A DNA stretch of 41,618 bases, taken from assembly GCA_025359205.1 (NCBI GenBank), contig JANYHD010000043.1:1-41618 (forward strand), given 5' to 3'. The first letter of the stretch is position 1; each line of letters opens with the position of its first letter. Of the stretch, positions 1 through 30,776 are shown in pieces. A program made the translations under genes and the position numbers. The notes below the pieces were generated by a model that saw only the letters and a program-made list of their open reading frames with translations, did no database searches and had not been told where the DNA came from. This DNA is from Gammaproteobacteria bacterium. Lineage in GTDB: Bacteria; Pseudomonadota; Gammaproteobacteria; Steroidobacterales; Steroidobacteraceae.

Positions 1-15
1 GGGGAGAATCAGGGG

Positions 16-44
16 AAAAGCCCGCAATACCCCAGGGGTCGGGC
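16..44 (-). terminator. Probable displaced terminator of the tRNA-fMet gene
   Basis: On the minus strand the arms GCCCG and CGGGC (plus-strand 40-44 and 20-24) enclose a 15-nt stretch that can itself pair, and four T follow. If the island at about 59-4627 is removed, this hairpin falls roughly 20-25 nt past the end of tRNA-fMet, where its terminator would be expected. The T tract is short, so this is a moderate call. I see no gene in bases 1-58. Confidence 0.45.
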
Positions 45-58
45 GCCCCCGCCGAACG

Positions 59-67
59 AGTGGTAGC
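59..67 (+). repeat. Left direct repeat, candidate attL core
   Basis: AGTGGTAGC is identical to 4619-4627 and in the same orientation. The flanking bases differ at once on both sides. Serine integrases leave short common cores, so 9 bp is compatible with an att site. The match is too short to prove it alone. Confidence 0.5.
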
Positions 68-117
68 AATCAAAGGCAGCGAGAGCGACAATTGATGGGG
101 TACGGGGAGGTCAACGA

Positions 118-396
118 ATGAAAACTATGCAGCAAACGAACGACGCCGTTGGCGGTGTGTTCAGAATCCTGTGGACCGGCGTTCGCTTGCCGATCCTTGG
201 CGTACTGGTGCTGTTCGAAGGTGCTGTACAGACCATTCTGGGCGGACTGGCATTCTTTATTTTCTTGACGGCACTGTTCTTCGAATTCGCCACACCAGTG
301 AGGCATTTTCCGTTCTGGACGATGATGGTCCTTAGCGGCGGTTGCCTATTGACGATAGTTTTTTACTACGTGTGTATTCGTGCGTTGTCCGATTGA
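118..396 (+). CDS. Small two-helix membrane protein of the element
   Basis: A 92-aa protein of unknown function. Residues from about 20 to 55 and 63 to 88 are strongly hydrophobic and predict two transmembrane helices, or a re-entrant first segment. There are short polar ends and no recognisable catalytic motif. The ATG at 118 has a good GGGGAGG ribosome site at 104-110, so it is likely a real gene. It lies just inside the left edge of the element and runs toward the convergent FlhD-like gene. Small membrane proteins of this general look occur in integrative elements, but I cannot assign a role. In the predicted excised circle it would lie directly after the recombinase gene. Confidence 0.6.
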   Translation: MKTMQQTNDAVGGVFRILWTGVRLPILGVLVLFEGAVQTILGGLAFFIFLTALFFEFATPVRHFPFWTMMVLSGGCLLTIVFYYVCIRALSD

Positions 397-496
397 GTGC
401 TGTCCCGCCCGCCTGCAAGTCTCGATAGAAGTCGCCATTCTGGATGGGGGTCGGCCAACGGTACCCCAAGCCAGTTTTGGATTGGTGGGCCGCGGG

Positions 497-1150
497 CTAT
501 CTGTCGGAAGCGAGGAGCTTGCCACAAAGAAGCAACTTGGCCTGCAAGTGAATGTCAGCCAATGCAAGCTGGTCGTCGCTAATGGCGGCAGCCATGAGCG
601 CGCCCCACCAATGCGGCGAGTCGCGCCAGCGAGGTTCTATTTCACCAGCGTTTTTCGCGGCGATGTCGCGTAATTCATGCGCACTCAGCCCCGCCACGAT
701 GGCAGAAACATCGGGCGACATTCCGACAATATGGACTGCACCGCGCGAATCGGACTGGACGATATGCCAGACGAACATCAGGGTTTCGTTCATCAGATGC
801 TCGCCGATTTCGGTCGGGAAACACGCCACTGCTGGCACTTCCGGTGGCACTGCAGGCCTCCGTGCCCGTTGCCACCATCGGGAATTAGTGAAATGAACAT
901 CCACGATGACGAACGGCAGACGCGCTGCTCGTTGACGAGCACTCCCGTCGAGGTTCCGCCACAACTCTCGATTCAGATTCACCAACGCCAACGGGCAGTC
1001 GTCTTCAGTGCCGGCGGCCATTTGTGACAATAGTTCCAGGCATCGATCATTCAACTGATACACAAGTTCAAGTGAACGCGCGCCGCGCCAACGCGGCGGC
1101 GACAGCGCCGCAGCTTGCGCCGCGCGCTTACCGCTCGACTCATTGGGCAT
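497..1150 (-). CDS. FlhD-like regulator with an extra N-terminal domain
   Basis: A 217-aa protein. From about residue 120 to 210 it resembles the FlhD fold: an IVQ stretch followed by alternating hydrophobics, a G-M-S-P turn, an LSAHELRDIAAKN helix like LTLPQMVKLAETN of E. coli FlhD, and a C-terminal IH…LL helix. The first 110 residues form a separate helical region (VYQLNDRCLELL, then a conserved-looking PFVIVDVHF) that ordinary 115-aa FlhD lacks. FlhD pairs with FlhC to activate transcription, and relatives control transfer genes in SXT-type elements. The ATG at 1150 has GGAG 6 nt upstream; a GTG at 1162 has none. It is divergent from the FlhC-like gene across about 140 bp. The FlhD relation is my alignment by eye. 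Confidence 0.6.
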   Translation of the reverse strand: MPNESSGKRAAQAAALSPPRWRGARSLELVYQLNDRCLELLSQMAAGTEDDCPLALVNLNRELWRNLDGSARQRAARLPFVIVDVHFTNSRWWQRARRPAVPPEVPAVACFPTEIGEHLMNETLMFVWHIVQSDSRGAVHIVGMSPDVSAIVAGLSAHELRDIAAKNAGEIEPRWRDSPHWWGALMAAAISDDQLALADIHLQAKLLLCGKLLASDR

Positions 1151-1290
1151 ACCGGACTCCACATAAAGGAGCCGGAATTCTTAATGGCAGCGCTCATGAT
1201 TACAGGGTCGGGTATCGAGTGAAAACCCGCTGAACTCGGTGCTCGGCACGGTGGCAACAAACAGATAACGAATGGTGTAGGGAGGGCGTT

Positions 1291-1851
1291 TTGGACATTC
1301 ATGTTACGGACGACCAGATCGGTCGCTACTTCCGTCGCCGACAGCTGGGATTGCGCCTGCTATCGCATGGAGCGCGCCCCCAGACCGTTCGAGAATGGAG
1401 TGGTCTCACTCGCGATCAGCTCGTCACCCTGCGGCGTCGCTGGTCAATCACGGCCGAAGAAGGACTCAGAGGGCCTTCGCCCAGTTCAAGTGAAGTGTTC
1501 TTCACTTCTGCGCGTGCATCTAACCACGCCGCATTATTTGCGAGCCTTTGTCAGATTGTCGGTGCGATTCCATCCCAGCGCGGCAAAGATGCAGCCAACG
1601 GATTGCCGTCGCTTGAGAACGGCGAACGGCTCTGCGAAGCGTTTGAGTTACTGAAAGAGTGGGCGCCGAGCGCCAAGATTGAATTCGAACAGGCGGTGCT
1701 GTTGGCTAGTGGCGTGGTCGAAGAGAAGGCCATGAAGCTGAATGCTTGCGCCAACTGTGGCGCCCCGACGCTCATCGACAAGTTGGGCTCAGGCCGCACA
1801 ACGTGCTCCTACTGTCGGCGGCGTGCGCCGAAGGCTGCGTCGCCCGAGTAG
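1291..1851 (+). CDS. FlhC-like transcriptional activator
   Basis: A 186-aa protein matching the FlhC layout. A helical N-terminus around residues 18-60 (LGLRLLSHGAR…LVTLRRRW, comparable to the LGARLQML…LIKLYKE stretch of FlhC) is followed by a G-P-S-P segment, an NHAALFASLC segment resembling the HASMFCN part of FlhC, and a C-terminal zinc site with Cys153, Cys156, Cys172 and Cys175. FlhC binds DNA in an FlhD4C2 complex; here the likely partner is the divergent FlhD-like gene. The TTG start at 1291 is supported by GGGAGG at 1280-1285 and the absence of any early in-frame ATG. Related FlhDC pairs (SetCD, AcaCD, SgaCD) switch on conjugation genes of mobile elements. None are present here, so the target is unknown. 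Confidence 0.75.
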   Translation: MDIHVTDDQIGRYFRRRQLGLRLLSHGARPQTVREWSGLTRDQLVTLRRRWSITAEEGLRGPSPSSSEVFFTSARASNHAALFASLCQIVGAIPSQRGKDAANGLPSLENGERLCEAFELLKEWAPSAKIEFEQAVLLASGVVEEKAMKLNACANCGAPTLIDKLGSGRTTCSYCRRRAPKAASPE

Positions 1852-2068
1852 GCGTTTCGTATCACCATCCATCGGCCGGGTATGTATTGGATTTGCATCG
1901 ATACCCTACAGCGCCGACGTGACGTTGATGTGTTCAGGCGCTGGCACTCCGCTGTTTAGGCCGTTTTTCGCTCGATTCTCTGTAATCCTTTTCGCCTGCA
2001 TCTTAGGCAACACTGCTCGCCAGTGACAGCTCGCCTTTGAATTGCACGAACTACGCGACGAGGATTGC

Positions 2069-2515
2069 ATGAACACCGAATTGAGCGATGCCAACCCCAA
2101 CTCCCAACTGCGCCTTTCCTGCACCCGCGTGGCACTGTCGCGCTGGGTGAACGAACCACTGCCCGCATGGCAAGACATTCTCAGCGCACACGATGTCGCG
2201 CGTCTAACGCGGCGGCCGACGTGGATACTCTGCGGATTAGCGCTGGTCGGCAGATTTCCAAGAGAATGCCAATATCGTGGACGCCGGATCGGTTGGTTGC
2301 GCTCCGATGTTCTCACCTGGATGACTCGGGAGCTGACGATCAAGGCAAGCGCGCCGCGAGTTATCGCTCGCTCTTATCAGGGTCGCGAACGCAGTTCTCG
2401 GCAACACTTCCTGCCGCTCGACTTCTCCTCACCCTGCGGGAGATCGATGCGGACGTCTGCTCGAACCAGGTCGAAAAGAAAGATCGAGATTCCCGTGTTG
2501 CTCAAGGATGATTGA
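2069..2515 (+). CDS. AlpA/excisionase-like helix-turn-helix protein
   Basis: A 148-aa protein from the ATG at 2069, chosen because GAGG lies about 7 nt upstream; the reading frame opens at a TTG at 2042 without a good ribosome site. Residues of about 35-85 (DILSAHDVARLTRRP … GRFPRECQYRGRRIGWLRSDVLTWM) have the winged helix-turn-helix look of AlpA/MerR-type excisionase proteins: an entry helix, a recognition helix and the R-R-I-G-W-xx-DV-xx-W wing. The basic C-terminal third has no recognisable domain. It may regulate the recombinase or act as a recombination directionality factor. It precedes the RHH–recombinase pair by 274 bp. Confidence 0.65.
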   Translation: MNTELSDANPNSQLRLSCTRVALSRWVNEPLPAWQDILSAHDVARLTRRPTWILCGLALVGRFPRECQYRGRRIGWLRSDVLTWMTRELTIKASAPRVIARSYQGRERSSRQHFLPLDFSSPCGRSMRTSARTRSKRKIEIPVLLKDD

Positions 2516-2572
2516 GGCGACATGGACCCGTCTCAACTCGAATTGATGCGGGGGACGCCCCAACGACACCGC

Positions 2573-2610
2573 TGTGCGTGAGCGGGACTTCTTTGTCCCG
2601 CTCACGCACA
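2573..2610. repeat. Perfect 16-bp inverted repeat with 6-nt loop
   Basis: The arms TGTGCGTGAGCGGGAC (2573-2588) and GTCCCGCTCACGCACA (2595-2610) pair fully around the loop TTCTTT. No T tract follows on either strand, so it is not a typical intrinsic terminator. It sits in the 274-bp gap between the AlpA-like and RHH genes. It could be a transfer origin, a replication site or a regulator target. The rest of the gap, apart from the 2762-2779 operator-like site, shows nothing I recognise. Confidence 0.7.
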
Positions 2611-2761
2611 AAGCGCATTCACTGCGTCAGAAGGGAACGGCGGCCGCGCCAACAGCGTGCATGAAGCCAAGCTCAACGGCCATAAGGCTGATTGAGTTAA
2701 TCGCGCGCGATTTGGCTCGCAAAGATTGGAGTGTTGCGGCTACGTGCGACTCGAAGTAGCA

Positions 2762-2779
2762 TACGGTGACATTACCGTA
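2762..2779. promoter_or_regulatory. Operator-like inverted repeat before the RHH–recombinase pair
   Basis: TACGGT and ACCGTA arms are separated by 6 bp, and the site ends 10 bp before the RHH start codon. Ribbon-helix-helix proteins bind short palindromes and often repress their own operons, so this is a plausible autoregulatory site. It overlaps the region where the ribosome site (AGGA, from 2779) begins. Confidence 0.4.
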
Positions 2780-2789
2780 GGAACGAATC

Positions 2790-3011
2790 ATGGCCGCGGT
2801 CAATTACAAGCCCATTGCGTGCTACCTGACACCCGCCCAGCACCAGGATTTGAAGAGGCTGAGCGCCAAAACGCTCGTGCCAATGCAGGTAATTCTCCGG
2901 CAGGCGGTGGATACGATTCTCGCCGAATACAGGATTCGACCGAACAAGTATCGGGATGAATACATCAATACGCGGCTCGCCCGCCTTCCTGGAAAGCGAG
3001 GCAAACGATGA
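2790..3011 (+). CDS. Ribbon-helix-helix DNA-binding protein
   Basis: A 73-aa protein with a short beta strand (KPIACYLTP) and two helices (PAQHQDLKRLSAKT and PMQVILRQAVDTILAEY), the standard ribbon-helix-helix arrangement of Arc/CopG-type dimeric repressors. The C-terminus is basic. An AGGA ribosome site precedes the ATG by about 7 nt. Its TGA overlaps the recombinase ATG (ATGA at 3008-3011), so the two are translationally coupled. It probably controls recombinase expression, or assists recombination as an accessory or directionality factor; the sequence cannot separate these. Confidence 0.65.
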   Translation: MAAVNYKPIACYLTPAQHQDLKRLSAKTLVPMQVILRQAVDTILAEYRIRPNKYRDEYINTRLARLPGKRGKR

Positions 3012-4642
3012 AAGCAGCGCTATACGCCCGATACAGTACCGACAAACAACGCGATGCATCTATCGACGACCAGTTCCGCGAGTGCGAGCGCGTCGCCCGC
3101 GCGGCCGGCTTCCATATCGTCGCGCGGTTCGCGGACAAAGGCATGTCCGGCGGAACGGCGGACCGGCCTGGATATCAAGCGTTACTCTCGGCCGCGCGCG
3201 GCAAAGTGTTCAGTGTAATCGTGGCGGAGGATATATCACGGCTGTGGCGCAACCGCGCTGAATTCGGGCCGCGCTCCGCCGAGTTTGAGGACCTTGGCGT
3301 GCATTGCGTGACCGCCGTTGGCGACGACACGCGGCGCGATGGCTGGGGGCTCGTAATTCAAATAAAACAAGCCGTCGCCGAACATGCGCGCCGCGAGGCA
3401 TCCTACCGCACACGTCGCGGTTTGGAAGGCAAAGCAATCAAAGGCGAGACTGCGGGCGGCAGAGCATACGGCTATCGGCCGGCGTCACAATCCCCGACCG
3501 GCCAGGTCGAAATCATTGAGGCCCAAGCTACTGTCGTGCTCCGAATCTTCGATTTATATGCAACGGGCCACTCGTCACGCTCTATCGCCGAACACCTCAA
3601 CGCTGAGAATGTCCCTAGTCCTGGCGCGGCTTGGAAGCGAACCGACACAGGCGAGCATGCGAAGCGGCGCGGAAAATGGGTTGGATCTGCGATCCACGGT
3701 GACCCGAAACGCGGTTACGGGATCCTGAACAATGAGCGCTATATCGGCCGACTCAATTGGGGTCGCCTGCAGTGGAAGCGCGGCGCCGCAAACAGCAAAA
3801 AGCGCACGCCTATCGCCGCCGATCCTGCTTCATTGGTGATGCGAGAGGACCCGAGGCTGCGTATCATTTCTGACGAGCTATGGCAGCGGGTGAAGGCACG
3901 CCAGTCCGCGCAGTCAATCGGCCCGCACGGGACGAAAGCGTCGAAGTCAGGAAAGCCGGCGACGTCCCTGCTTTCTGGCCTGCTGCTCTGTGAGGATTGC
4001 GGTTCTCGCTTCATTGCTAGCGACCAGTACTGTTACCAATGCGCAACCCGCACCTACGGCGGCGTCAGTGCATGTTCGAACAAGCTTCGTGTGAAGCGAG
4101 ATCGCGCGGAAGCCGCAATCATTGACTACATAGGCAACGAGTTGCTGTCTCCTGCGGCGATCGACATCGCGAAGCACGCGTATCAAGATGCCTTACGGGA
4201 GGATATGGGAACGCGCGAGCGCGAACTGGGCAAGGATAGACGAACTGACGGGCTACAGGCCGAAGAGACTAAGCTCAGAGCAATGTTAAAGGCTGGAACG
4301 CTGTCACCCGACGTCGCGCAAGCCGCTCTCGATGCGCTGGAGACCAAGCGAAGGAAGATTGCAGTCGCTCTTAGGTCGCCAGCCCTGCGCAGCCCGGAAG
4401 CCTTCTCGCTCGGGGCAGAACGCTACCGAGAAGCGGTGCGAAATCTGGGAAGGCACGTTGCAAGCAGCGCGCAGGCTGCGGAGGAGCGGAGTCTAGTGCG
4501 CGAGTTATTGGGTGGGCACGGAACCGTGTTCATGCGAGACGGCCGGATTGGTGCAAGATTTCGATCTGCCGGTTTGCTCGATATGGCAGAATTTTCTTAT
4601 AAATCAATAACCTATAATAGTGGTAGCGGGGGCAGGATTTGA
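3008..4642 (+). CDS. Large serine recombinase (site-specific integrase)
   Basis: A 544-aa protein. The N-terminal resolvase domain begins with the ALYARYSTD motif (catalytic Ser10, Arg8) and contains DISRLWRNR. A central recombinase domain spans about 150-290. A zinc ribbon has Cys328, Cys331, Cys345 and Cys356, and a charged helical segment (about 385-470) looks like the coiled coil of large serine integrases. It would catalyse integration and excision of the element. The final residues and the TGA at 4640-4642 are encoded by the 3' end of tRNA-fMet read on the opposite strand, so the integration site provides the end of the gene. All hallmark residues are present and the gene looks intact. 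Confidence 0.92.
   Translation: MKAALYARYSTDKQRDASIDDQFRECERVARAAGFHIVARFADKGMSGGTADRPGYQALLSAARGKVFSVIVAEDISRLWRNRAEFGPRSAEFEDLGVHCVTAVGDDTRRDGWGLVIQIKQAVAEHARREASYRTRRGLEGKAIKGETAGGRAYGYRPASQSPTGQVEIIEAQATVVLRIFDLYATGHSSRSIAEHLNAENVPSPGAAWKRTDTGEHAKRRGKWVGSAIHGDPKRGYGILNNERYIGRLNWGRLQWKRGAANSKKRTPIAADPASLVMREDPRLRIISDELWQRVKARQSAQSIGPHGTKASKSGKPATSLLSGLLLCEDCGSRFIASDQYCYQCATRTYGGVSACSNKLRVKRDRAEAAIIDYIGNELLSPAAIDIAKHAYQDALREDMGTRERELGKDRRTDGLQAEETKLRAMLKAGTLSPDVAQAALDALETKRRKIAVALRSPALRSPEAFSLGAERYREAVRNLGRHVASSAQAAEERSLVRELLGGHGTVFMRDGRIGARFRSAGLLDMAEFSYKSITYNSGSGGRI
4619..4627 (+). repeat. Right direct repeat, candidate attR core
   Basis: AGTGGTAGC, identical to 59-67. Seven of its nine bases are the acceptor end and CCA of tRNA-fMet (minus strand GCTACCA), so recombination here would restore a complete tRNA 3' end. 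Confidence 0.5.
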
Positions 4643-4697
4643 ACCTGCGACCTTCGGGTTATGAGCCCGACGAGCTGCCAGACTGCTCCACCCCGCA
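4621..4697 (-). tRNA. Initiator tRNA-fMet (CAU), CCA encoded
   Basis: A 77-nt cloverleaf with anticodon CAU in a loop closed by three G-C pairs (GGG/CCC), the initiator signature recognised in the ribosomal P site. The acceptor stem pairs from position 2 (GCGGGG/CCCCGC). Position 1·72 is unpaired, as required for formylation, but is U·U here instead of the common C·A. The CCA is encoded. In gammaproteobacteria this gene often sits between the nuo operon and rimP-nusA-infB, so rimP is expected to the left of the window. The recombinase gene overlaps its last 22 bp in antisense. Confidence 0.95.
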
Positions 4698-11183: not shown

Positions 11184-12299
11184 TCAGGCGCGCCACGGGC
11201 CAACGTGGAACCAGGCCAGGACACCCTCCACCGCTATCCACACGATCGTGATCGGGATCAGCACCTTCCAGCCCAGGCGCATGATCTGATCATAGCGATA
11301 GCGCGGGAAGGTGGCGCGCAGCCACAAGAACACGCACAGCAGCGCAAAGATCTTCAGCGCCAACCAGTGCGTGCCGTCGCCGAGCACCAGGCCCACTGCC
11401 TTTCCCAGGTACGGCACCGGCAGATGGCGCAGCGCACTGTCTGCGGACAGGTAACCATCGAGCGGGCTCAGCCAGCCGCCCAGGAAGAAAATTGCGGTCA
11501 GCGCCGCGATCAGGATCATGTTGGCGTATTCAGCCAGGAAGAACAGCGCAAAGCCCATGCCGGAATATTCGACGTGAAAGCCCGCGACGATTTCCGACTC
11601 GCCCTCGGCGACATCGAAGGGTGCGCGGTTCGTCTCGGCCACGCCGGAGATGAAATACACCATGAACAACGGGAACAGCCACACCATGTTCCAGTGGAAC
11701 GGCGCGCCGCGCTGGTGTTCGACGATGACGCCCAGGTTGAGGCTCCCGGCCGCCATCAGCACGCCGACCAGTGCGAAACCCATGGCGATCTCATAGGCGA
11801 CGATCTGCGCGGCCGAGCGCATTGCGCCCAGGAAAGCGTACTTGGAATTGGAGGCCCAGCCGGCGAGGATCACCCCGTACACGCCCACCGAGGTGAGTGC
11901 GAGCAGGTAGATCAAACCCGCGTTGACGTCCGCGATGGCGAAGCCCGGGGCGATCGGAATCACCGCCCAGGCGGCAAACGCTGGTATGAGCGTGATCGCC
12001 GGCGCCAGCCGGAACAGCACGCGATTGGAGCGCGCGGGTGTGATGATCTCCTTGATAAGGAGCTTCACCACGTCGGCGAATGGCTGCCCTATATATTCCG
12101 TGTGCGGAATGCCGAACAGACGCACCCGGTTCGGGCCGCGCCGCATCTGCATCCAGCCGATGAGCTTGCGCTCCCAGAGCGTCAGGTACGCGACGCTGAG
12201 AATCAGCACAATGCTGAGTGCCAGGATGAACACCGTCGAGTGGACAAAACCCGGCAATGCGAGCCAGTGCGCCGACAACCAGCTGCCGGGGGCCGTCAC
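11184..12299 (-). CDS. nuoH: NADH-quinone oxidoreductase subunit H
   Basis: A 371-aa membrane subunit that forms much of the quinone chamber. The [20 protein letters not shown] motif near the N-terminus and the acidic loop around [19 protein letters not shown] are diagnostic. It is longer than E. coli NuoH (325 aa), with extra length in the N- and C-terminal regions. It starts with GTG at 12299, overlapping the nuoG stop (GTGA), which indicates coupling. Confidence 0.95.
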
Positions 12300-14476
12300 G
12301 AGGGATACTCCGCGGCCGCAGCCAGTCCGGCGCGTGTCTGCTGGAGCGAGGGCGCACGGCGCAGCAGCGGATCGAGCCGGTACATGGGCAGGTCGCGCAA
12401 CGTTTCGACCGCGGCCGAGCGCGTGGGCACGAAGGCGCTCTCGTAACCCAGGCGCGGCGCGCGTTCAACCGCCGCACGCAACTCGTCGCGCACGATCTCG
12501 GATGACTGGTATTCGAAGCCCTCCAGGTCGAGCAGGTTGCCCAACACCCGCAGGATCTTCCACGCCGGGCGCGCGCTGCCCGGCGGACGAGCCGCGCCCG
12601 CAAAACTCTGCCAGCGCCCCTCGAGGTTCACATAGGTGCCCGAGGTCTCGGCAAACGTCGCCGCGGGCAGCAGCACCTGCGCCACCTGCAGCATGGCCGG
12701 TGAGGCATAGGAAGCAATAGCGCCGACGAAGCGCGCGCGCTCTAGCGTGGCCAGGGTATGCGGTTGCAGACCGTCCGCCCAGGGTTCAGCACCCAGCAGC
12801 AGGTATCCGGGCAGCGGCTCTTCCAGCATCTGTCGCGCGTTGCGTCCGTATGCCGCGCGCACCATGCCGCCCGCCGCGCGATGCGGCGTGCAGCCGGCCA
12901 GGTAAGCGCCGGCCGCGTTGGCGCCTTCAGCCAGCTCACCAAGGGTGGCGCCCGTGACGCGCGCCAATTCGCGTGCCAGCGCCCGCAGCTCGGCATAGGC
13001 CGAGTGGCGGAGCGCCAGGGCTCCGAGCCAGATGGCGCGTTGGCCCTTGGCCAGCGAGGCCGCGATAGCCTTGTGTGCGACATTCGGCGCCACGCCCGCC
13101 AGCAGCGGTGCGAGTGAGGCAGGCGCCGCAGCAGCGCCGGCCTCGAGCGCTGCGCCCAGCACGCCCGCGAGTTCGTGCAGCATCTGTGCCGGGTTTGCCA
13201 CCAGCACGTTCGCAGTGGGGAACAGGTATTCGTAGCGCTGCGGATTCAGGAAGCTTACGGCGGCGCCGCGGCGCGCGGCCTTGCGCACGCGATGCGCGAG
13301 CATCGGCAGTTCCGCGCGCAGGTTGGAACCCACGATGAGTAGTGCATCCAGTGCGTCGACATCGGCTATCGCCAGGCTGAGGTGCGGTACCAATGGATCG
13401 CCGCCCTGGTCGCGGAAATCACGCTGACGCAGGCGATGGTCGATATTCGAGCTGCCCAGGCCCTCGGCCAGCCGCGCCAACAGGTACAGCTCTTCGAGCG
13501 TGCTGGACGGGTGCGCCATATACCCCGCGCCATCGGCGCCGCGCCCGGTACTGGCGGCGCGCAGGCCCTTGGCCATGGCGTCGAGCGCCGTGTCCCAATC
13601 CGCATCCTGCCACTGGCCGTTGCTCGCGCGGACGCGCGGCGCGGTCAGCCGGTCTGCGGCCGCGAGGCCTTCGTAACCGTAGCGGTCGCGATCGCAGATC
13701 CAGGTCTCGTTGATCTCCTCGCAGGGCTGCGGCACCACGCGCATCAACTTGCCACGCAGCACATGCCCATACAGGCGGCTGCCAAAGCCATCATGCGGCG
13801 ACACCAGCGGATGCTGGGTCATCTCCCAGGCACGCGCGTGGAAGCGAAACGGCTTGCTGTTGAGGGCGCCGACCGGACACAGGTCAATGATGTTGCCGGA
13901 CAGTTCATGATCGACACTGTGCTCGACGAACGTGCCGATCTGCATGTTCTCACCGCGACCCGTGGTGCCCAGTTCCTGGATGCCCGCGATTTCCTGCCCG
14001 AAGCGCACGCAGCGCGTGCAGTGGATGCAGCGGGTCATGTCGGTGGACACCAGCGGACCCAGGCTCAGGTCTTTCACTACGCGCTTGCGCTCGTGGTAAC
14101 GCGAGATATCGCGGCCGAAGCCCACCGCCAGGTCCTGCAGTTCGCACTCGCCGCCCTGGTCGCAGATCGGGCAGTCAAGCGGATGGTTGATGAGCAGGAA
14201 TTCCATCGTCGCTTTCTGCGCCGCGATCGCCTTGGGCGAGCGCGTGAAGATCTTCATGCCTTCGGCGACCGGCGTGGCGCAGGCCGGCAGAGGCTTGGGT
14301 GCTTTTTCCACCTCGACCAGGCACATGCGGCAGTTGGCGGCGATCGGCAGTTTGTCGTGATAGCAGAAGCGCGGGATGTAGGCGCCGTTCGCGTCCGTGA
14401 CGCGGATGATCATCTCGCCCTTGGGCGCCTTGACGGCGACGCCGTTCACCTCGACGTTGACGAACTCGGCGCTCAT
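12296..14476 (-). CDS. nuoG: NADH-quinone oxidoreductase subunit G
   Basis: A 726-aa peripheral subunit holding electron-transfer clusters. Ligands visible: N1b [2Fe-2S] at Cys38, Cys49, Cys52, Cys66; N5 at His98, Cys102, Cys105, Cys111; N4 at Cys150, Cys153, Cys156, Cys200. The rest is a molybdopterin-oxidoreductase-like domain without obvious cofactor function. The length is close to the mitochondrial type (about 727) and shorter than the 908-aa E. coli protein, and the extra N7-type cysteine motif is not apparent. It overlaps nuoF by 4 nt (ATGA). Confidence 0.96.
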
Positions 14477-15798
14477 GCCGCCACCTGTGTGCCGCGCGCC
14501 GCGTCGGGCGCGACGATGCTGCGCCCGGCGTGATCGACCATGAATTCGAACTCGTGCCGGTAATGCTTGAGAAAACTCTGCACCGGCCAGGCCGCCGCGT
14601 CACCGAGTGCACAGATCGTGTGCCCCTCGATGCGATTCGCCACATCGAGCAGGAGCCCGAGGTGCTCGCGCGTGCCCTGCCCTGCGAGGATGCGTTTAAG
14701 CGTGCGGTTCAACCAGCCGGTACCCTCGCGGCAGGGCGTGCACTGCCCGCAGGATTCGGACATATAGAAACGCGCCAGGCGCTCGAGCGTGCGCACCATG
14801 CAGGTGGTCTCGTCCATGACGATCACGGCAGCCGAGCCAACACTGGAGCCGCTCGCCTTGAGCGAGTCGTAGTCCATGTTGGTCTTCATCATGATCTCGC
14901 CCGGCACCACCGGCACCGAGGAGCCGCCGGGTATCACGGCCTTGATGTGGCGCGCCTTCCAGATGCCGCCGGCCATGTCGAGCAGGTCGGCGAAGGGAAT
15001 GCCCAGCGGCACCTCGAAGTTGCCCGGGTTGTTCACGTGGCCCGAAACCGAAAAGATATTCGTGCCGCCAGAATTGACGGGGCCGAGCGCGGCGAACCAT
15101 TGCGGGCCCTTGCGCAGGATGGTCGGCACCGAGGCAAAGCTCTGGCAGTTGTTGATCGTGGTCGGCGCGCCGTACAGGCCAAATGCGGCCGGGAACGGCG
15201 GCTTGAAACGCGGCTTGCCCTGCTTGCCCTCGAGCGAATCGAGCAGCGCGGTCTCTTCACCGCAGATGTAGGCGCCCGCGCCGACGAAGGTGTACAGGTC
15301 GAAATCGACGCCCGAGCCCATGATGTTCTTGCCGAGCAGGCCCGCGGCATAGGCCTCTTTCACCGCCGCCTCGAAGCGTGGCACCGGCTCGCCGAGGAAC
15401 TCGCCGCGGATATAGTTGTAGCCGACCGTGGCGTTCATTGCATAGCCGCCGATCGCCATACCCTCGATGAGCGCATGCGGATTGAAACGCAGGATGTCGC
15501 GGTCGTGGCAGGTGCCAGGCTCGCTCTCGTCCGAGTTGCAGACCACGTATTTCTGCATCGGCGCGTTGCGCGGCATGAAACTCCATTTCACGCCCATCGG
15601 GAAGCCGGCGCCGCCGCGGCCACGCAAGCCCGAGGCCTTGACGGCATCGATAATCTGCTCGCGCGGGGTCTTCTCGGCGAGCATCTTCTTCCAGGACTCG
15701 TAGCCGCCGATGCCCGTGTAGGTGGCGAGCGTCCACGGGCGCTCGAGCTTGATGGGCTCGAGGCACACCAGGTTCCGCTTGTCGTCCCATGCTCCCAT
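14473..15798 (-). CDS. nuoF: NADH-quinone oxidoreductase subunit F, NADH/FMN binding
   Basis: A 441-aa subunit that oxidises NADH and passes electrons to cluster N3. The FMN/NADH-binding glycine-rich motif GRGGAGFP is at 60-67, the second loop [13 protein letters not shown] at 173-185, and the [4Fe-4S] ligands are Cys350, Cys353, Cys356 and Cys396 ([12 protein letters not shown]). Length is typical. It starts 15 nt after nuoE and overlaps nuoG. Confidence 0.97.
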
Positions 15799-15813
15799 GC
15801 GCGCTGCCCGTCC

Positions 15814-16335
15814 CTACTTCAGCTCATCGAGAATGCGGTCGATTCGCTCAGCCGTCAGATTCTCGTGATAAACGTGATCGACCATCATCATCGGTGCGCC
15901 CGTGCAGGCGGCCAGGCATTCTTCTTCCTGCTTGAGGAAGATGCGCCCATCGGGCGTGCTCTCCCCCACCTTGATGCCGAGCCGCCTTTCGACATGCACC
16001 AGCAGATCTTCGGCGCCGCGCAGCATGCAGGAGATATTGGTGCACACGCTCACGTGGTGGCGACCGCAGGGATGGGTCTCGAACATCGAGTAGAAGCTGG
16101 CGATTTCGTAAACCTGGATCGGCGGCAACTGCAGGTAAGCCGCAATCGCGTCCATCAGCGGAGCGGTCAGGTATCCCTGGTTCTGCTCCTGCGCCGCGCG
16201 CAACGCCGCGATCACCGCCGAGCGCTGGCGGCCGGCCGGGAAGCGCGCGACCCAGTGATCGATCTCGGCGCGCGTGTGCTCGGACAATGCCGCTGGCGGT
16301 AGCGCGCCGCCCATTGGGCCCTCTGTAGCGCTCAT
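15814..16335 (-). CDS. nuoE: NADH-quinone oxidoreductase subunit E, [2Fe-2S]
   Basis: A 173-aa thioredoxin-fold subunit of the NADH dehydrogenase module. Cluster N1a ligands are Cys98, Cys103, Cys140 and Cys144 in the CTNISC and CLAAC motifs. The start at 16335 shares one base with the nuoD stop (TGATG). The frame open upstream to 16836 lies inside nuoD and has no family similarity. Confidence 0.95.
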   Translation of the reverse strand: MSATEGPMGGALPPAALSEHTRAEIDHWVARFPAGRQRSAVIAALRAAQEQNQGYLTAPLMDAIAAYLQLPPIQVYEIASFYSMFETHPCGRHHVSVCTNISCMLRGAEDLLVHVERRLGIKVGESTPDGRIFLKQEEECLAACTGAPMMMVDHVYHENLTAERIDRILDELK

Positions 16336-24756: not shown

Positions 24757-25384
24757 CTACACCAATCGCAGGCCGCTCGCCAGCAAGTAGATCTCGGCGC
24801 TCCGCGCGCGGGAAGCGGCCGGATTCAGGAAGCGCACGGTCCTGAATTGACGGCGCGCGGCCGCGGTCAGTTCCTGGAAACCAGGCCCCCTGGAAGACCT
24901 TGATGAGGGCACCGCCGCCGGGTTTCAATGCCTTGCCGGCCAGCTCGAGCGCGAGCTCGGCGAGGCATATGGCCCGGGGCTGGTCGATGACGTCCATTCC
25001 GCTCAGGTTGGGCGCCATGTCGGATAGCAACACGTCCACGCCCCGCTCTCCCGCCAGCGCCAGCAGTTGCCCGAATACGGCCTCTTCGCGGAAGTCACCC
25101 TGCACGAACTCCACGCCAGCCAGGGCGTCCATGGGCAGGATGTCGCTCGCGATGACCTTCCCCTGCGGCTTCACCTTCGCCCTTGCGTACTGGCTCCAGG
25201 CGCCGGGCGCTGCACCAAGATCGAGCACCACCTGCCCGCGCCGCAACAAATGCTCCTTTTTGTCGGCCTCCTCCAGCTTGAACACGGCCCGGGATCGCCA
25301 GCCCTCGGCCTGGGCGCGCTTCACGTAGGGATCCGAAAAATGTTCCTGCAGCCAGCGGCTGCTGCTCTGCGTGCGGCGGGTCAT
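24757..25384 (-). pseudogene. rlmE: rlmE, 23S rRNA 2'-O-methyltransferase, frameshifted in a 5-base run
   Basis: RlmE methylates U2552 of 23S rRNA using S-adenosylmethionine. Residues 1-165 are normal: the entry VFKLEEADKK, SAM motif DLGAAPGAWSQ, DMAPNLSG and LIKVFQG, with catalytic Lys, Asp and Lys. After VFQG the frame becomes an arginine-rich tail ending at 24752. Removing one base of the five-C plus-strand run at 24886-24890 restores FQELTAAARRQFRTVRFLN and ASRARSAEIYLLASG, ending at TAG 24757-24759, with the last catalytic Glu. It is either a sequencing or assembly slip in a homopolymer or a true mutation. The start at 25384 was chosen from the family; the frame stays open to 25405. Confidence 0.88.
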
Positions 25385-30741: not shown

Positions 30742-30776
30742 TGCGCCAATAAGCCCATTTTGGTCGAAAACAGACC

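What the first reader, a model, noticed from the sequence alone, without database searches (positions are those of the whole stretch)
59..4627. A 4.56-kb serine-recombinase element carrying its own FlhD/FlhC-like activator pair but no transfer genes
Seen: recombinase, RHH, AlpA-like HTH, FlhC-like, divergent FlhD-like and a small membrane protein, bounded by a 9-bp repeat. Known: FlhDC relatives SetCD, AcaCD and SgaCD activate conjugation genes of SXT elements, IncC plasmids and the SGI1 island. Inference: a minimal satellite that keeps the master switch without the machinery may steer a helper element's transfer genes, or link movement to host flagellar or other FlhDC targets. Alternatively it is the remnant of a larger element.
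Basis: partly seen in the sequence, partly recalled or inferred. Interest (0 to 1): 0.85.

Follow-up and report, generated by a model that had tools for sequence, protein, structure and literature searches.

The report
Mobile island carrying conjugation's master switch
A piece of recently transferred mobile DNA in an uncultured bacterium carries a flagella-type (FlhC/FlhD-like) gene switch that, in related elements, sits beside DNA-transfer genes and shares their likely control sites; it looks like a small conjugation satellite, but one of its ends lies off the assembled contig.

Summary
The six genes are real, and the FlhC/FlhD-like pair is confirmed by profile match to solved FlhC and FlhD. 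The recombinase end is a true integration at a tRNA-Met gene: another genus carries the same DNA (1 mismatch in 2,820 bp) at the same tRNA, in flanks only 65-74% identical. That is recent horizontal transfer.

The 4.56-kb size is not supported. Position 1 is the contig edge. The left 9-bp repeat lacks the G-run where related recombinases appear to cross over, and lacks inverted arms. A 14-bp distal tRNA repeat lies on another contig of the genome.

Nineteen element-side FlhC rows separate from a chromosomal paralogue; 8 of the 19 lie near VirB4. A dyad motif recurs between flhC and flhD, upstream of AlpA-like genes and upstream of virB. A same-genus element (G325) is 4.3 kb, bounded by a 12-bp repeat, carries integrase, AlpA, membrane protein, FlhC and FlhD, and its genome has no VirB4.

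Best reading: the recombinase end of a small SGI1-like conjugation satellite. Helper use is inferred, not shown.

The parts
1..58 (.). contig edge; outside or inside of the element not decidable from the window
   Evidence: window = whole contig C17 of G000; window 1-200 matches nothing else in 15 genomes of the genus apart from a chance-level 20-bp hit, E 0.067
59..67 (+). left 9-bp repeat AGTGGTAGC; probably chance, not the attachment end
   Evidence: only two copies in 41.6 kb; lacks the G-run kept in related distal repeats and shows no inverted arms
118..396 (+). small membrane protein (92 aa), recurrent partner of the AlpA/FlhC/FlhD set
   Evidence: tblastn relatives in conjugative and T4SS-poor elements; no Pfam family at E <= 0.001
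497..1162 (-). FlhD-like protein, 221 aa, C-terminal FlhD domain plus about 110 extra N-terminal residues
   Evidence: profile A2 matches FlhD 8j56 E 3.6e-7, 1g8e 1.8e-4; 9 of 14 members hit Pfam FlhD at E <= 0.1
1291..1851 (+). FlhC-like protein, 186 aa, with four invariant cysteines
   Evidence: Pfam FlhC 1.8e-4; profile A1 matches FlhC 2avu 7.9e-10 full length; Cys 153,156,172,175 invariant in 14 of 14
1956..1977 (+). predicted FlhC/FlhD-like operator TTAGGCCGTTTTTCGCTCGATT upstream of the AlpA-like gene
   Evidence: rank 2 in 41.6 kb with a motif trained without the window; 0.5% of same-length stretches outside the element score as high
1156..1234 (.). divergent flhD/flhC promoter region; candidate operators 1156-1177 or 1213-1234 (position unsure)
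   Evidence: rank 3 at 1156 in the held-out scan; 1213 is best when the window is in the training set but reaches only 7.3 held out
2042..2515 (+). AlpA-like winged-helix protein (likely ATG at 2069); probable recombination directionality factor or regulator
   Evidence: phrog_2790 excisionase/regulator E 8.9e-5, Pfam AlpA 0.059; 43-66% identity over 71-132 aa to AlpA-like genes of related elements
2573..2610 (.). perfect 16-bp-stem hairpin between AlpA and RHH genes; role unknown
2762..2779 (.). palindrome TACGGT-N6-ACCGTA just upstream of the RHH gene; likely RHH auto-operator (inference)
   Evidence: sequence; seen
2790..3011 (+). ribbon-helix-helix DNA-binding protein, overlaps the recombinase start by 4 nt
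   Evidence: Pfam RHH_3 E 4.1e-7
3008..4642 (+). large serine recombinase (Resolvase + Recombinase + Zn ribbon), stop codon inside the tRNA gene
   Evidence: PF00239 9e-29, PF07508, PF13408, phrog_95 integrase 1e-72; 100% identical protein in G299
4619..4632 (.). right attachment junction at the tRNA-Met 3' end
   Evidence: identity to G299 is unbroken from 2674 to 4632, then tRNA alleles and flanks diverge
4621..4697 (-). tRNA-Met (CAT), integration target, beside nuo genes; called fMet here from its GGG/CCC anticodon stem (recalled hallmark of initiator tRNA, not tested)
   Evidence: in relatives the tRNA match commonly starts at query 22 = window 4621

Best explanation
The window holds the recombinase-side end of a small integrated mobile island in the 3' end of tRNA-fMet, probably without conjugation machinery of its own: a conjugation satellite in the manner of SGI1. 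Its core is a control module shared with VirB-type conjugative elements of the same order. An FlhC/FlhD-like complex binds about 22-bp dyads in its own divergent promoter and upstream of the AlpA-like gene, which probably supplies the recombination directionality factor, so switching on the pair would drive excision by the serine recombinase. The same dyads lie upstream of virB in the conjugative relatives, so the pair could also raise a helper's transfer genes. Shown: the genes, homology, recent transfer, the shared motif, and a bounded T4SS-less sister element. Inferred: DNA binding, activation, AlpA as directionality factor, helper use, and absence of transfer genes beyond the contig edge.
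For: Recent transfer into the same tRNA in another genus: 1 mismatch in window 1813-4632, flanks 65-74% identical. FlhC tree: 19 element-side rows lie on one side of a 100/99 branch, 40 others on the other; the window falls in an 8-row clade (99/92) with four VirB-linked copies. Pair near VirB4 in G115, G029, G235, G215, G351, G309, G332, G363. Motif LLR 97.6 against 40-48 in 4 shuffles; held-out virB test 6 of 7. G325 element: Tyr-integrase, AlpA, membrane protein, FlhC, FlhD within a 12-bp repeat 4,293 bp apart, one copy being the last 12 coding bases of gcvP. No VirB4 match in G000 or G325. Three related-recombinase loci with paired repeats span 8.8 (G336), 11.4 (G079) and 14.6 kb (G293) and show no homologue of G115's VirB4, VirB8, CagX or TrbI.
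Against: The left end is off the contig, so a conjugation module could follow. Genomes here are drafts, and bins lose mobile DNA: G299 lacks everything left of window base 1813, including most of flhC. No relaxase or oriT was looked for. With no VirB4, neither G000 nor G325 shows a resident helper. The G029 element's virB site was not found by the motif, and with the window held out the best-scoring site of the contig (30758) lies outside the element. G079 and G293 each have a second distal repeat farther out. G299 carries a VirB4 on a separate 6.4-kb contig that could belong to its copy. The membrane gene lies beyond FlhD here, unlike in the relatives where both were found.
Confidence: 0.5

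Rival explanations
1. The block is the regulatory and recombinase end of a complete self-transmissible ICE; its VirB genes lie just past the contig edge and were lost in assembly or binning.
For: Same order and orientation AlpA, FlhC, FlhD as in G115 and G029, where virB follows. In 7 of 8 conjugative relatives VirB4 starts 0.9-1.6 kb past FlhD; only 0.5 kb remains here. G299's copy is also cut by a contig end and that genome has a VirB4.
Against: G000 has no VirB4 match although 97% complete in 43 contigs. A convergent membrane gene, not virB, follows FlhD. Three related-recombinase loci with paired repeats span only 8.8-14.6 kb and show no VirB homologue.
Confidence: 0.3
2. One reading: a complete 4.56-kb satellite ending at the 9-bp repeat at 59.
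For: The 9-mer occurs only at 59 and 4619 in 41.6 kb; a given 9-mer is expected 0.017 times in 4.56 kb (my arithmetic). Gene content equals that of the bounded 4.3-kb G325 element apart from RHH and recombinase type. A contig break beside an attachment site is natural if circular forms exist (inference).
Against: No G-run at positions 8-12, where two related attP sites are centred, and no inverted arms: 7 of 20, null mode 8. Distal tRNA repeat TGGTAGCGGGGGCA sits on contig C33.
Confidence: 0.15
3. A decaying remnant: the pair is a leftover of an ICE and no longer moves.
For: FlhC copies with internal stops exist in relatives (G167:C57 two, G167:C90 one). tRNA-fMet holds several layered islands in relatives.
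Against: All six genes are open; near-identity with another genus shows recent movement of the right part.
Confidence: 0.1
4. The pair controls host genes (flagella or others) rather than element genes.
For: Host genomes carry a chromosomal FlhC/FlhD-like paralogue, often beside nudC-tamA-tamB, so cross-talk is conceivable.
Against: Several of the 8 chromosomal intergenics scanned show a different palindrome (TTTGGGAAAAAATTCCCAAA-like), and the paralogue is a separate group. Host targets were not searched for.
Confidence: 0.05

Closest known systems
SGI1-family integrative mobilizable elements (SgaDC) with IncC helper plasmids (AcaDC)
   Same: Satellite and helper each carry FlhDC-type activators, and activator sites lie upstream of xis (PMC4207636 and PMC9927553, passages read; PMC8409611, passages).
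   Different: Tyrosine integrase at trmE, with mobilization genes and oriT in SGI1; here a serine recombinase at tRNA-fMet, no mobilization gene seen in the visible piece, VirB-type kin, and a dyad motif of its own. No SGI1 protein was compared directly.
SXT/R391 ICEs (SetCD)
   Same: FlhDC-type pair as master activator of an ICE (PMC4344509, search listing and abstract start only; PMC4207636 passage).
   Different: Different transfer system, integrase and gene order (recalled); the window shows no transfer genes.
ICEclc BisDC
   Same: FlhC-like BisC expressed from a promoter called PalpA; Pfam DUF2857 (PMC7423338, passages). The window FlhC also touches DUF2857, but only at E 0.2.
   Different: BisD is ParB-like and no FlhD domain was detected there; here a true FlhD-domain partner, divergently transcribed.
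VirB-type ICEs of G115, G029, G351, G309, G215, G235, G332, G363
   Same: Same FlhC/FlhD pair with VirB4; AlpA-like gene found in G115, G029 (11 kb off), G351, G309; membrane-protein match in seven of eight, not in G235, in four of them antisense to an over-long AbiEi reading frame or its relative; shared dyad motif.
   Different: They carry VirB4 (8 of 8) and VirB8, CagX and TrbI homologues (6 of 8; contig ends cut G309 and G332); integrase matches near G115, G029 and G309 are to tyrosine integrases.

Membership tests
FlhC family | full-length homology to FlhC incl. four-cysteine zinc motif | tested here: met
   profile to 2avu_E positions 6-176, E 7.9e-10; four Cys invariant in 14 of 14; single-sequence Pfam score 21.8 is below the 27-bit cut-off
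FlhD family | FlhD domain homology | tested here: met
   profile 112-198 to 8j56_A E 3.6e-7; window protein alone is below Pfam cut-off (14.1 vs 27 bits)
Large serine integrase | Resolvase + Recombinase + Zn-ribbon domains | tested here: met
Large serine integrase | site-specific integration at one target | tested here: met
   same tRNA 3' end in G299; of 16 family genomes with a recombinase match at E <= 1e-60, 12 have a tRNA-Met gene match in the fetched stretch beside it (88-91% to this tRNA in G247 and G291), 4 (G261, G363, G364, G235) do not
SGI1-like integrative mobilizable element | defined element ends | tested here: inconclusive
   right end defined; left end off contig, 9-bp repeat doubtful
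SGI1-like integrative mobilizable element | no own T4SS | tested here: inconclusive
   none in 1-4620; no VirB4 in G000, but the element is cut by the contig edge
SGI1-like integrative mobilizable element | oriT / mobilization genes and helper dependence | not tested
   no relaxase or oriT search was run
Conjugation master activator (AcaCD/SetCD type) | binding sites upstream of transfer and excision genes | tested here: inconclusive
   predicted motif upstream of virB in 6 of 7 scanned relatives and of AlpA in the window; no binding experiment
ICE | complete conjugation module in the element | tested here: inconclusive
   not in the visible piece; sequence ends at base 1

The most novel reading that the evidence does not exclude
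A family of 4-5 kb 'switch-only' satellites in uncultured gammaproteobacteria: a recombinase of either type, an AlpA-like factor, one membrane protein and an FlhC/FlhD pair, which move by turning on the virB genes of a helper ICE through operators common to both.
Probability: 0.3. Interest if true: 0.8.

Novelty: new variant of a known kind. Interest (0 to 1): 0.6.

Why it matters
FlhDC-type activators of conjugation are known mainly from SXT, IncC and SGI1 in enteric and vibrio hosts (recalled, and the papers listed). Here an unrelated lineage of VirB-type ICEs and at least one small T4SS-less island share one activator pair and one operator family. That would make the satellite-helper relation a recurrent design and gives exact DNA sites to test. 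The bounded 4.3-kb G325 element is close to a minimal genome for such a satellite.

Tried and rejected
Plasmid collection: distant blastn of 1-4620 gave 3 records with 65-70-bp recombinase pieces only; tblastn of FlhC gave no match; tblastn of the recombinase gave 308 records, best places all under 60% identity. IMG/VR: FlhC found no relative (close relatives only); two exact junction patterns gave 0; the recombinase gave 2 contigs, one ending in tRNA-fMet sequence. An ORF antisense to the virB2/virB3 region was first taken for a gene and dropped. C36:13260 in G000 holds TGGTAGCGGGG, and its arm scores 9 of 14 at centre 15 and 8 of 14 at 11.5 (1.1% of random arms reach 8 there); it was dropped because it lies inside a GGDEF/EAL gene among topoisomerase, peptide-transporter, M1-peptidase and tRNA-synthetase genes, with none of the element genes nearby. 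An empty-site test for G325 by gcvP synteny failed because no other genome of the genus showed more than weak partial matches to that gcvP. A distal repeat for the G167 tRNA-Ser and G256 tRNA-Phe elements was not found in the fetched stretches. G167:C69 was first counted as T4SS-less, but VirB4 lies about 52 kb away on the same contig, so it is not used as a satellite example. G289:C24 is flanked by metabolic genes that may be cargo, so its extent stays open. Rows dropped before the tree: of 86 FlhC loci, pieces under 140 aa and near-duplicates (60 kept), then L027 (59 used). No structure was predicted.
Full report
WHAT IS IN THE WINDOW. All six reported genes are present and open: small membrane protein 118-396 +, FlhD-like 497-1162 -, FlhC-like 1291-1851 +, AlpA-like 2042-2515 +, RHH 2790-3011 +, serine recombinase 3008-4642 +. 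tRNA-Met(CAT) is at 4621-4697 -, next to nuo genes (named by recall; not scanned). I call it fMet because its anticodon stem has the GGG/CCC pairs of initiator tRNA (recalled hallmark). The window is the entire contig C17 of a draft genome, G000 (2.98 Mb, 43 contigs, 97% complete), so base 1 is an assembly edge, not a chosen cut.

FLHC/FLHD IDENTITY. Single-sequence Pfam scores are below the curated cut-offs (FlhC 21.8 vs 27 bits; FlhD 14.1 vs 27). Family profiles settle it: alignment A1 (14 FlhC-like) matches FlhC 2avu_E at 7.9e-10 and 8j56_C at 1.1e-9 over nearly the whole length. Alignment A2 (14 FlhD-like) matches FlhD 8j56_A at 3.6e-7 over profile positions 112-198, and 1g8e at 1.8e-4, so these FlhD-like proteins carry about 110 extra N-terminal residues. 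The four zinc-type cysteines are invariant in 14 of 14 FlhC-like proteins.

RECENT TRANSFER. G299, of another genus in the same family, has a 100% identical recombinase. Window 1813-4632 matches G299:C72 with one mismatch (2673). Differences begin inside the tRNA at 4633, and the neighbouring nuo region is 65-74% identical in the aligned pieces. Two chromosomes with different tRNA alleles therefore carry the same inserted DNA at the same site. G299 is a MAG, GL140_6_metabinner_39; its contig stops at window base 1813, so the left part was not seen there. A search for the FlhC protein in G299 found only a distant copy (34% identity), which lies beside a nudC-like gene. Of 217 family genomes, 16 have a recombinase match at E <= 1e-60, and in 12 of these a tRNA-Met gene match lies beside it.

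THE LEFT END. The finding's 9-bp repeat (59-67 and 4619-4627) is unique in the window, but three results speak against it as an element end. First, among nine related-recombinase loci (L108, L111-L117, L119) four have a distal copy of the tRNA 3' end in the fetched stretch, and it runs 11-21 bp, always with TGGTAGCGGGG; in five none was found. Second, right-end and distal arms were paired for the four. Two show inverted arms matching 10 of 14 positions centred at 11.5, inside the G-run (G293, G336); random arms reach 10 or more in 16 of 5000 trials. G079 has 9 of 14 at centre 9.5 and 7 of 14 at 11.5, and G330 shows no such symmetry. The left repeat of the window has no G-run, and a junction made from it gives 7 of 20, below the null mode of 8. 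Third, the rimP contig of G000 carries TGGTAGCGGGGGCA at C33:74981, 1,056 bp before its end, and that of G231 carries the same 14 bp 625 bp before its end. In G199 rimP and tRNA-fMet lie about 3.6 kb apart. The likely arrangement is rimP ... distal repeat | island(s), gap | this contig | tRNA-fMet. The arms at C33:74981 resemble those at two other sites (in L112 and L109), of which the L112 one lies outside the paired serine element, so C33 may close another, older island (inference); against the window's right arm C33 scores only 3 of 14 at 11.5. A pattern search for TGGTAGCGGGG found in G000 only the tRNA, C33 and C36:13260, and in G299 only the tRNA. C36 lies inside a GGDEF/EAL gene in a core-gene neighbourhood and was dropped.

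TWO KINDS OF FLHC/FLHD PAIR. FlhC-like matches occur in 208 of 246 genomes of the order. A tree of 59 FlhC rows puts 40 on one side of a 100/99 branch and 19 on the other. For 33 of the 40, a nudC-like or tamA/tamB gene lies in the fetched stretch; for 7 it was not seen. This is a chromosomal paralogue, and G000 has its own at C41. Of the 19, eight lie in a fetched stretch with VirB4: G115, G029, G235, G215, G351, G309, G332, G363. Four of the 19 (G164, G079, G257, G276) show no AlpA, membrane or VirB match in the fetched stretch and were set apart beforehand only for lacking nudC. Pfam confirmed VirB4, VirB8, CagX and TrbI next to the G115 pair. The window row sits in an 8-row clade (99/92) with G115, G029, G351, G309, two G289 copies and G167:C57. 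In 7 of the 8 conjugative relatives VirB4 starts 0.9-1.6 kb past the FlhD stop; in G332 it lies on the FlhC side. G115, G351 and G309 are near-copies (VirB4 95-96%).

A BOUNDED SISTER ELEMENT WITHOUT TRANSFER GENES. In G325, same genus, a tyrosine integrase, AlpA-like gene, membrane protein, FlhC and FlhD lie between two copies of CAACGGACTAGT, 4,293 bp apart, one of them the last 12 coding bases of gcvP. A shared 12-mer between the two stretches compared is expected about 0.03 times (my arithmetic). Pfam names the neighbours as gcvP, gcvT and serine dehydratase on one side, and ABC transporter and MarR genes on the other, beyond three scanned ORFs without a Pfam name and one ORF not scanned. 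G325 has no VirB4 match; neither does G000. Other cases are less certain: G289:C24 (integrase fragment, AlpA, membrane protein, histidine kinase, FlhC, FlhD, then metabolic genes), G289:C166 (FlhC, membrane protein, AlpA, tyrosine integrase, tRNA-fMet end), G256 (tRNA-Phe, integrase, AlpA, FlhD/FlhC, then contig end). G289 and G256 do have VirB4 on other contigs. G167:C69 has a VirB4 about 52 kb away and is not counted.

A SHARED OPERATOR. Motif search over 36 regulatory stretches found a dyad near TTTCGCCGAAAATTCGGCGAAA. LLR was 97.6 against 40-48 in four dinucleotide shuffles (width 18, palindromic) and 166 against 77-85 (width 20). Trained without virB regions, but with other stretches of the same elements, the motif places a site upstream of virB at rank 1 or 2 in 13.6-19.9 kb for L054, L052, L184, L172, L050 and L175, but not for L051: 6 of 7, of which L050 and L172 are near-copies. 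In L050 rank 1 lies about 80 bp before an integrase reading frame. Trained without the window, ranks 2 and 3 in 41.6 kb are 1956-1977 (upstream of AlpA) and 1156-1177 (flhD start); rank 1 is elsewhere, at 30758. Only 0.5% of same-length stretches outside the element score as high as the AlpA site; the strict flhC-flhD intergenic reaches only 7.3 (4.7%), and the RHH and membrane-gene upstreams are at chance; 0 of 300 column-shuffled matrices put two of three top sites in the AlpA upstream and 1150-1280. Trained without G325, rank 1 is its AlpA/membrane-gene intergenic and rank 4 its flhC/flhD intergenic. Of 8 chromosomal intergenics scanned, several show a different palindrome and one (L056) scores 15.9 with the element matrix. 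The element-type motif also occurs at pairs where neither RHH nor AlpA was found in the fetched stretch (G257, G276), so FlhC/FlhD is the likeliest binder (inference).

MECHANISM. By analogy with AcaCD sites upstream of xis in SGI1 (PMC4207636, passages) and with SgaDC (PMC9927553, passages), the FlhC/FlhD-like pair would activate itself and the AlpA-like gene, giving excision by the serine recombinase. RHH, translated with the recombinase through a 4-base overlap and preceded by the palindrome 2762-2779, probably limits recombinase expression (inference). Transfer would need a VirB system: from a helper, or from the unseen rest of the element. The gene after FlhD (a convergent membrane gene rather than virB), the lack of VirB4 in G000, the small spans of three related loci (8.8, 11.4, 14.6 kb) and the G325 element favour a satellite; draft-bin losses keep the ICE reading open.

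NOVELTY. Searches of the held literature for FlhDC-type activators in mobile elements (listings of 20 of 179, 19 of 19, 2 of 2, 15 of 153 and 1 of 1 papers) showed work on SXT, IncC, SGI1 and ICEclc among unrelated papers; I noticed nothing on this lineage in the titles and abstract starts. Only open-licence papers were searched. I file it as a new variant of a known kind. The 4.56-kb claim does not stand; the switch-bearing, transfer-poor island does.

Noticed in passing
window 4621-4642 and 11 loci with the same or related recombinases at tRNA-fMet: In 12 of 12 loci examined (the G299 copy of the same element included) the long recombinase frame runs into the antisense of the tRNA gene and takes its stop there (+22 in 8, +44 in 4), so excision would change the recombinase C-terminus.
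   Followed up: partly
G000:C41 (L049), L056, L058, L059 and others: A chromosomal divergent FlhC/FlhD-like pair sits beside nudC-tamA-tamB in many genomes of the family, often with its own palindrome; its targets are unknown.
   Followed up: partly
A2 alignment, first about 110 columns: FlhD-like proteins of element and chromosomal pairs carry a conserved N-terminal extension that the solved-FlhD match does not cover.
   Followed up: no
tRNA-fMet in G336 (L114), G079 (L115), G293 (L112), G289 (L170, L171), IMG/VR L207: tRNA-fMet is a layered hotspot taking serine-type and tyrosine-type islands and an IMG/VR viral contig; several copies of the tRNA end lie in one array.
   Followed up: partly
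G000:C33 about 74287-74907 and window 24863-25375: A second RlmE/FtsJ-like gene (name recalled, not scanned) lies just before the distal tRNA-fMet repeat; 47% identical to a stretch in the window.
   Followed up: no
window 2573-2610: Perfect 16-bp-stem hairpin without a T-run between AlpA and RHH genes.
   Followed up: no
window 30758: Best-scoring site of the contig for the motif trained without the window, outside the element; context not examined.
   Followed up: no
L053 (G167:C57) 11237-15823: A HerA-NurA-methyltransferase set lies between remnants of the same FlhC/FlhD/membrane gene set and an AlpA-like gene; looks like defence cargo.
   Followed up: no
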